Shown: one piece after another, positions 34,958-36,741 of the stretch | Position numbering within the stretch: the first letter of the stretch is position 1 | Layout: every line of letters begins with the position of its first letter | Origin: Bryum argenteum | Lineage: Eukaryota; Streptophyta; Bryopsida; Bryales; Bryaceae | NCBI GenBank assembly: GCA_037043015.1 | Contig: CM073324.1 | Span: 27,854,097-27,918,096, forward strand | Direction of reading: 5' to 3' | DNA: 64,000 nucleotides | Notes under the pieces: model-generated | Told to the model about the DNA's origin: nothing | The model's input: the letters and a program-made list of their open reading frames with translations, nothing else | Database searches by the model: none | Made by a program: the position numbers and the translations under genes

Positions 34958-34969
34958 TATGGCCATTGC
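34958..34969. repeat. Target-site duplication of the GATA-tailed SINE, left
   Basis: TATGGCCATTGC here and at 36730-36741, a perfect 12-bp duplication. The whole GATA array and the SINE body lie between the two copies. Confidence 0.88.
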
Positions 34970-36729
34970 GAGATAGATAGATAGATAGATAGATAGATAG
35001 ATAGATAGATAGATAGATAGATAGATAGATAGATAGATAGATAGATAGATAGATAGATAGATAGATAGATAGATAGATAGATAGATAGATAGATAGATAG
35101 ATAGATAGATAGATAGATAGATAGATAGATAGATAGATAGATAGATAGATAGATAGATAGATAGATAGATAGATAGATAGATAGATAGATAGATAGATAG
35201 ATAGATAGATAGATAGATAGATAGATAGATAGATAGATAGATAGATAGATAGATAGATAGATAGATAGATAGATAGATAGATAGATAGATAGATAGATAG
35301 ATAGATAGATAGATAGATAGATAGATAGATAGATAGATAGATAGATAGATAGATAGATAGATAGATAGATAGATAGATAGATAGATAGATAGATAGATAG
35401 ATAGATAGATAGATAGATAGATAGATAGATAGATAGATAGATAGATAGATAGATAGATAGATAGATAGATAGATAGATAGATAGATAGATAGATAGATAG
35501 ATAGATAGATAGATAGATAGATAGATAGATAGATAGATAGATAGATAGATAGATAGATAGATAGATAGATAGATAGATAGATAGATAGATAGATAGATAG
35601 ATAGATAGATAGATAGATAGATAGATAGATAGATAGATAGATAGATAGATAGATAGATAGATAGATAGATAGATAGATAGATAGATAGATAGATAGATAG
35701 ATAGATAGATAGATAGATAGATAGATAGATAGATAGATAGATAGATAGATAGATAGATAGATAGATAGATAGATAGATAGATAGATAGATAGATAGATAG
35801 ATAGATAGATAGATAGATAGATAGATAGATAGATAGATAGATAGATAGATAGATAGATAGATAGATAGATAGATAGATAGATAGATAGATAGATAGATAG
35901 ATAGATAGATAGATAGATAGATAGATAGATAGATAGATAGATAGATAGATAGATAGATAGATAGATAGATAGATAGATAGATAGATAGATAGATAGATAG
36001 ATAGATAGATAGATAGATAGATAGATAGATAGATAGATAGATAGATAGATAGATAGATAGATAGATAGATAGATAGATAGATAGATAGATAGATAGATAG
36101 ATAGATAGATAGATAGATAGATAGATAGATAGATAGATAGATAGATAGATAGATAGATAGATAGATAGATAGATAGATAGATAGATAGATAGATAGATAG
36201 ATAGATAGATAGATAGATAGATAGATAGATAGATAGATAGATAGATAGATAGATAGATAGATAGATAGATAGATAGATAGATAGATAGATAGATAGATAG
36301 ATAGATAGATAGATAGATAGATAGATAGATAGATAGATAGATAGATAGATAGATAGATAGATAGATAGATAGATAGATAGATAGATAGATAGATAGATAG
36401 ATAGATAGATAGATAGATAGATAGATAGATAGATAGATAGATAGATAGATAGATAGATAGATAGATAGATAGATAGATAGATAGATAGATAGATAGATAG
36501 ATAGATAGATAGATAGATAGATAGATAGATAGATAGATAGATAGATAGATAGATAGATAGATAGATAGATAGATAGATAGATAGATAGATAGATAGATAG
36601 ATAGATAGATAGATAGATAAATAGATAGATAGATAGAAACTCCGGTCCCTTTCTAAGGGGCCGGCGTGAATGAAGTGTCCGTTCGTAATGCTAATATACC
36701 GATGGCCACCGGACAAGGGGAAATTGAAA
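34970..36729 (-). mobile_element. 5'-truncated SINE with a 1.67-kb expanded (GATA)n tail, minus strand
   Basis: On the minus strand the SINE 3' end runs from CAATTTCCCC (36726) through GGACCGGAGTTTC (about 36640), followed by (TATC)n. On the plus strand this is an array of about 417 GATA units (about 34971-36638) with a single visible interruption (GATAAATA near 36619). The 12-bp duplications at 34958-34969 and 36730-36741 enclose both body and array, showing that the array arose as the tail of this insertion. The 639-codon minus frame encoding a Tyr-Leu-Ser-Ile repeat is a translation of the microsatellite, not a gene. Confidence 0.9.
34971..36638. repeat. (GATA)n microsatellite, about 1,668 bp
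   Basis: Near-perfect tetranucleotide array, one interruption close to the SINE junction. Perfect homogeneity over this length implies recent expansion by slippage or unequal exchange. An assembly artefact in copy number cannot be excluded. Confidence 0.95.
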
Positions 36730-36741
36730 TATGGCCATTGC

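What the first reader, a model, noticed from the sequence alone, without database searches (positions are those of the whole stretch)
34958..36741. A 1.67-kb (GATA)n array is the expanded tail of a single SINE insertion
The array runs directly into the 3' end of a minus-strand SINE, and a perfect 12-bp target duplication (TATGGCCATTGC) encloses array plus SINE. The tail therefore arrived with, or grew from, this insertion. Sister copies have tails of only a few units, so one grew to about 417 units while staying almost perfect. This is a clear case of a retroposon seeding a very long microsatellite, at a locus dateable by its SINE.
Basis: seen in the sequence. Interest (0 to 1): 0.8.

Follow-up and report, generated by a model that had tools for sequence, protein, structure and literature searches.

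The report
Retroposon tails grown into giant microsatellites
A 1.7-kb run of the four-letter repeat GATA in a probable plant genome is the overgrown tail of a small jumping element, and a genome-wide count suggests that jumping elements sow the seeds of nearly all long GATA runs there, a few of which later explode in length.

Summary
In detail: 417 units of AGAT (34971-36637, one interruption) abut a minus-strand retroposon fragment, and a perfect 12-bp duplication encloses both. The fragment is the last 93 bp of a 348-bp SINE with tRNA-like promoter boxes; its 3' 133 bp resembles LINE ends of the same genome. "Single" is wrong. A whole-genome census found 70 arrays containing at least 8.5 pure units; 67 are retroposon tails, including all 37 of 35 units or more (up to 657). 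Of 1,692 exact SINE ends, 17 reach 9.5 pure units. SINE tails fall into classes of about 2-6, 9-18 and 35-657 units; three LINE tails lie at 21-28. "Dateable by its SINE" is also wrong: 24 SINE arrays carry 0.15% edits against 2.25% divergence of their own SINE bodies, so they are younger than, or homogenised since, the insertion. One array clearly, and a second probably, contains copies of its own target-duplication edge, which shows growth as DNA after insertion. Long AAAG arrays also occur, so retroposons supply the GATA seeds while expansion may be a wider property of this genome. This is microsatellite seeding, a known kind, in an unusually complete form. Assembly error cannot be excluded without reads.

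The parts
34958..34969 (.). target site duplication, copy at the far end of the array (TATGGCCATTGC)
   Evidence: exact 12-bp match, only two occurrences in the window
34971..36637 (-). (TATC)n tail of the SINE = (GATA)n on the + strand, 416.8 units, one interruption at 36620
36637..36729 (-). 5'-truncated SINE body (positions 256-348 of 348), 2 substitutions of 93 from the family consensus
36637..36669 (-). terminal stem-loop region shared by SINE and LINE 3' ends (pairing kept with a different stem sequence in many LINE ends, read by eye)
   Evidence: the fold as a whole is no more stable than shuffles (z 0.04)
36730..36741 (.). target site duplication, copy at the 5' side of the SINE
5886..6244 (+). 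full-length sister SINE with short tail; duplication TGTAGGACCTAT read by eye
10415..10773 (+). full-length sister SINE with short tail; duplication TGATTGATCATG read by eye
28925..29018 (-). 5'-truncated sister SINE with about 2 tail units; duplication TTTGTTCTTCGT read by eye
26365..26452 (-). short truncated copy of a LINE-type 3' end with a TTATCATC-like tail (limits approximate); duplication AGAACGGAAA read by eye

Best explanation
The feature is a 5'-truncated SINE that arrived with a short (TATC)n tail, and whose tail later grew. Shown here: the truncation, the enclosing duplication, the SINE 3' end shared with LINEs, the short tails of sister copies, and the census in which all 37 arrays of 35 units or more are retroposon tails. 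Also shown: SINE-type arrays are far purer than their own SINE bodies, altered SINE/array junctions occur almost only in long arrays, and one array clearly (a second probably) contains copies of its own target-duplication edge, so growth took place in DNA after insertion. Inferred: a LINE recognising the shared 3' stem-loop made the insertion; growth is threshold-like, most tails below about 9 units staying short while some longer ones run away to tens or hundreds of units; the means is block duplication (slippage, unequal exchange or break repair) that also removes interruptions. The expansion machinery is probably general, since long AAAG arrays exist too; retroposons provide the GATA seeds.
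For: Enclosing 12-bp duplication. Anchored duplications in 15 of 23 long SINE-type arrays against 4 of 506 swapped pairs. Census: 86 run edges = 70 arrays; an automatic test put 64 beside retroposon 3' ends, and on reading 3 of the other 6 are tails too. Run starts by phase 41:3:35:7. Exact SINE ends with TTTC junction: 1,692, of which 118 reach 5.5 and 17 reach 9.5 pure units; of these 17, 10 are 9.5-13.75 and 7 are 42.75-249 units, where a rough geometric extrapolation predicts 0.00007 of 35 or more. Purity: 29 edits in 19,430 array bp against 107 of 4,761 non-CpG body sites, 56 of them private; Fisher p 2e-20 for the private ones. Internal copies of the duplication edge: clear in C8:15544005, probable in C10:10240217. 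Altered junctions in 13 of 25 long SINE-type arrays against 1 of 24 shorter ones. TATC junction expanded in 7 of 16 ends against 17 of 1,692 for TTTC, p 4e-10. SINE 3' 133 bp matches six of six LINE-type ends that I chose, the 215-bp head none.
Against: 8 of 23 long SINE-type arrays show no clear duplication, and a looser duplication test was poorly specific (17 of 32 own against 48 of 992 cross pairs). The gap between tail classes is partly filled by LINE tails of 21.5, 22.75 and 28.25 units. Read type of the assembly is unknown; polishing could erase interruptions. Body divergence includes inherited subfamily differences; private changes are judged among 56 copies only. The compound array at C2:22612475 is impure although its SINE is only 2.6% diverged. 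Long AAAG arrays show that expansion is not confined to these tails. No reverse transcriptase domain of the LINE was seen: two C-terminal peptides have no Pfam match and the follow-up search did not complete.
Confidence: 0.82

Rival explanations
1. The long tails were made at the moment of insertion by reiterative, telomerase-like copying of the TATC template by the LINE reverse transcriptase.
For: LINE ends and SINE share the tail motif. A bare 360-unit array (C3:22734828) lies between two copies of ATCATTGT with no SINE body, as if only tail was inserted. Bimodal lengths would fit an occasional runaway synthesis.
Against: SINE-type arrays carry 29 edits where their SINE bodies predict 262-451. 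One array clearly and one probably contain internal copies of host target sequence, which the RNA template lacks. A tail-only insertion needs no long tail: copies truncated to 22 and 28 bp of body are seen.
Confidence: 0.1
2. The SINE inserted next to or into a GATA array that was already there.
For: Insertion into simple repeats is a general possibility (no call).
Against: The duplication encloses array plus SINE at this locus and 15 of 23 long SINE-type arrays have anchored duplications. 64 of 70 arrays begin at a retroposon 3' end by the automatic test and 67 on reading; the longest of the 3 without a retroposon has 26.75 units.
Confidence: 0.02
3. The array lengths or purity are assembly artefacts (inflated or over-polished repeats).
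For: Platform unknown; two-base deletions of the same kinds recur inside several arrays, as sequencing errors might.
Against: The long class lies in dozens of unlinked places, most with readable flanks on both sides (4 of 37 run off the fetched stretch). 1,574 of 1,692 ends with the same sequence stop before 5.5 pure units, although interrupted long tails such as the window's are counted among these.
Confidence: 0.06

Closest known systems
Microsatellite seeding by CR1-L3 and Rex LINEs in snakes (PMC6050309; passages read)
   Same: LINE 3' tails disperse a short repeat that becomes a genome-wide microsatellite class, with adjacency as the test.
   Different: There the seeded motif is AATAG, and the ATAG class (the GATA motif) showed no enriched element; here GATA arrays are almost all retroposon tails, SINE and LINE both, and a subset reaches hundreds of nearly pure units.
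DM2 CCTG repeat from an AluSx insertion (PMC3378579; abstract read)
   Same: A tetranucleotide array at a SINE 3' end inside target duplications that expanded to a very large size (75-11,000 units).
   Different: One human locus whose motif evolved out of a poly(A) tail; here the motif is the element's own tail and dozens of loci in one genome are expanded.
Carnivore microsatellites associated with tRNA-Lys SINEs (PMC1634856; abstract read)
   Same: tRNA-derived SINEs as a source of microsatellites.
   Different: AG and A-rich motifs, described in the abstract as more complex and with less potential instability.
tRNA-head SINE with LINE-derived 3' end and stem-loop (for example tobacco TS; recalled, no call)
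   Same: Composite SINE whose 3' end and simple-repeat tail resemble a partner LINE.
   Different: Family name, host species and partner clade not identified here.

Membership tests
tRNA-derived SINE with LINE-type 3' end | RNA polymerase III boxes in the head | tested here: met
   A-like box TGGCTTGGTGG and B-like box GGTTCTATTCC, each with one mismatch to box consensuses recalled from memory; 7 of 5,000 shuffles have such a pair
tRNA-derived SINE with LINE-type 3' end | Head recognisable as a tRNA | tested here: not met
   no tRNA match in Rfam at E up to 5 and none by ARAGORN; so tRNA descent is inferred from the boxes only
tRNA-derived SINE with LINE-type 3' end | Target site duplications | tested here: met
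   7 bp or more in 15 of 23 long SINE-type and 14 of 25 shorter arrays (the latter not filtered for LINE type); swapped pairs 4 of 506
tRNA-derived SINE with LINE-type 3' end | 3' end shared with a LINE of the same genome | tested here: met
   3' 133 bp matches 6 of 6 chosen LINE-type ends at 72-78% over 101-128 bp, head matches none
tRNA-derived SINE with LINE-type 3' end | Transcription by RNA polymerase III | not testable with these tools
   no expression data
LINE (partner element) | Reverse transcriptase domain | tested here: inconclusive
Microsatellite seeded by a retroposon | Array begins at the element's 3' end in its tail motif | tested here: met
   67 of 70 arrays on reading
Microsatellite seeded by a retroposon | Duplication encloses element plus array | tested here: met
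Expanded, unstable repeat locus | Expansion later than insertion | tested here: met
   purity test; duplication edge inside one array clearly and one probably
Expanded, unstable repeat locus | Length varies among individuals or cells | not testable with these tools
   one assembly only

The most novel reading that the evidence does not exclude
In this genome a SINE/LINE pair scatters TATC seeds, and seeds that pass roughly 9-14 units can enter a runaway state, so that every giant GATA array (37 of 37) is a retroposon tail and the same expansion can be followed at dozens of parallel loci of known starting sequence: a natural replicate experiment in repeat expansion.
Probability: 0.5. Interest if true: 0.75.

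Novelty: new variant of a known kind. Interest (0 to 1): 0.62.

Why it matters
Why a short tandem repeat suddenly becomes a giant one is an open question, usually studied at single disease loci. Here dozens of loci start from the same tail sequence, with the same flank on one side and often a duplication marking the original end on the other, while well over a thousand siblings stayed short. Thresholds, edge effects and chromosomal context can be compared across loci. The arrays may also make highly variable markers, and they warn that the age of a SINE does not date the repeat attached to it.

Tried and rejected
Uniqueness of the window array was rejected by the census. Dating the array by its SINE was rejected by the purity test. 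Tail length against SINE divergence gave no correlation (rho 0.05, p 0.71, 62 copies). The SINE 3' RNA fold is no more stable than shuffles (z 0.04). Rfam and ARAGORN found no tRNA in the head. A GATA-only expansion was weakened by the AAAG control: 997 overlapping matches to 25 pure units, of which the first 100 are listed and come from 3 arrays of about 37, 71 and at least 64 units.

Rows dropped: one search kept 62 of 82 SINE hits (those reaching the 3' end); one search left out 6 of these 62 with 10% or more divergence; one search left out arrays cut off by the fetched stretch, the compound array and LINE-type arrays, keeping 23 long SINE-type arrays. The looser duplication test (17 of 32 own against 48 of 992 cross pairs with 8 bp or more) was replaced by the anchored one. 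The census sees only arrays with at least one pure run of 8.5 units, and the counts of SINE ends use exact words, so diverged ends and interrupted tails are missed or counted as short.

The listings show no report of such arrays in a plant; the library is partial, so this is weak. Host identity: a passage in PMC11704416 gives 259 Mb for the moss Bryum argenteum, close to the 258.8 Mb here, and PMC13120521 gives 262 Mb for Hypnum curvifolium; both are guesses from size only.

Full report
The array spans 34971-36637 (416.8 units), with a single interruption at 36620. It lies between the 93-bp retroposon fragment at 36637-36729 and one copy of a 12-bp duplication; the two copies start at 34958 and 36730. 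Sister copies in the window have tails of 2 to 4 units.

What the element is. Two window copies are full length, 348 bp (5886-6233 and 10415-10762), begin AGGCACCACAAGCC and carry A-like and B-like boxes (box consensus recalled). Rfam and ARAGORN do not recognise a tRNA. The copy under the finding is positions 256-348, so it is 5'-truncated, as are many others. The last 133 bp of the SINE match six of six LINE-type ends that I chose, at 72-78% over 101-128 bp, while the first 215 bp match none. The terminal hairpin keeps its pairing although the stem letters differ: CCGG-CCCTT/AAGGG-CCGG in the SINE, CCAATCTTC/GAAGATTGG in many LINE-type ends (read by eye). Of five LINE-type ends translated, one continues upstream into a 347-residue open frame and another into 247 residues, with a cysteine-histidine pattern; the rest are shorter or broken. 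These two peptides match no Pfam model at E up to 1; the reverse transcriptase was not reached, so calling these elements LINEs rests on length, truncation, duplications and tail.

Census. The window lies in a 258.8-Mb genome of 25 contigs, probably a plant: snoR101 is found just above its threshold. Pure TCTA runs of at least 8.5 units were sought by their 5' edge in each of the four phases: 41, 3, 35 and 7 edges. These 86 edges merge to 70 arrays. An automatic test puts 48 beside the SINE-type end and 16 beside the LINE-type end; one of the 48 (C5:5435914) looks LINE-type by eye. Of the 6 left over, reading shows one SINE with a deleted hairpin (C1:9517328), one compound TCTA/TCTG/TCTC tract that starts directly at a SINE end (C2:22612475), and one bare 360-unit array between two copies of ATCATTGT, 13 bp by eye (C3:22734828). 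Three arrays of 26.75, 10.75 and 9.25 units have no retroposon. Thus 67 of 70, and 37 of 37 with 35 units or more, are retroposon tails. The 36 of these that are not compound average 244 units, median 159; 4 of them run off the fetched stretch, so their lengths are minima.

Tail lengths. Exact SINE ends with at least 1.5 tail units number 1,708: 1,692 with the canonical TTTC junction and 16 with TATC. Of the 1,692, 118 reach 5.5 pure units and 17 reach 9.5. Of those 17, 10 lie between 9.5 and 13.75 and 7 between 42.75 and 249. Extrapolating the decline from 5.5 to 9.5 predicts 0.00007 copies of 35 or more, so the long class seems to come from another process. Exact words miss diverged ends, and interrupted tails count as short, the window array among them. 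SINE tails show no length between 18.25 and 35 units; LINE-type tails of 21.5, 22.75 and 28.25 units partly fill this gap.

Age. For 24 SINE-type arrays of 35 or more units, 29 edits are seen in 19,430 bp, and 15 arrays have none. Their SINE bodies differ from the consensus at 107 of 4,761 non-CpG sites, 56 of these private among the 56 copies compared. Equal age would predict 451 edits or, from private changes, 262. Divergence is similar in the three tail classes: 2.25% (35 or more, 24 copies), 1.55% (8-35, 18 copies), 2.02% (up to 8, 14 copies). The SINE therefore does not date the array; the array is younger, or has been homogenised.

Growth in DNA. In C8:15544005 the 3' target sequence TTAGGTCTAAATATC stands twice at the distal end, 75 bp apart with pure repeat between, and its other copy lies before the SINE as TTAGGTTTAA. 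In C10:10240217 the start TACATAT of the duplication stands twice inside the array, 32 bp apart; small edits could mimic this, so I call it probable. Target DNA is not in the RNA template, so such blocks were copied after insertion. On the SINE side, altered junctions are found in 13 of 25 long SINE-type arrays and 1 of 24 shorter ones. The TATC junction is expanded in 7 of 16 ends against 17 of 1,692 for TTTC (thresholds 8.5 and 9.5 units). An expanding array seems to overwrite its own border.

Limits. Long AAAG arrays also exist here, and whether they start at retroposons is unknown; the tendency to expand may be general, and the retroposons then explain where GATA arrays arise rather than why repeats grow. 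8 of 23 long SINE-type arrays lack a clear duplication. Read type is unknown, individuals cannot be compared, and no relatives are held.

Known kind. Seeding of microsatellites by retroposon tails is reported in snakes (PMC6050309, passages) and suggested for carnivore SINEs (PMC1634856, abstract), and the giant DM2 repeat arose at an Alu end (PMC3378579, abstract). What I have not seen in these is the completeness (37 of 37 giant arrays), the split between tail classes, and evidence that growth followed insertion at many parallel loci.

Noticed in passing
G000 contig C1 (44.1 Mb): The largest contig is poor in this SINE: 31 exact 3' ends over 44 Mb against 69 in the first 8.7 Mb of C2, and only 1 of the 70 arrays. 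It might be a sex chromosome or a block of different history.
   Followed up: no
window 36751-36829: A 40-bp tandem duplication (92% matches) starts 10 bp after the SINE-side target duplication.
   Followed up: no
window 34857-36833, minus strand: The TATC strand is open in all three frames (Ser-Ile-Tyr-Leu repeats), giving spurious open frames of 577-659 residues.
   Followed up: no
L070, positions about 1346-1500: A LINE-type 3' end with a 3-unit tail is followed at once by a second LINE-type 3' end whose tail is the 425-unit array: nested insertion or template jump.
   Followed up: no
L015 (array C6:7285698): A SINE with a 13-unit tail runs directly into a second, 5'-truncated SINE 3' end: insertion into the tail or template jump.
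   Followed up: no
G000, AAAG arrays at C1:20030182, C2:2496377, C2:9115892: Pure AAAG arrays of about 37, 71 and at least 64 units; whether these too start at retroposon tails is unknown.
   Followed up: partly
window 58733-62405, plus strand: Open frames resembling a Ty1-copia LTR retrotransposon, judged by eye from the translations.
   Followed up: no
window 22263-22327, minus strand: snoR101 C/D box snoRNA, 40.9 bits against a gathering score of 40.
   Followed up: no
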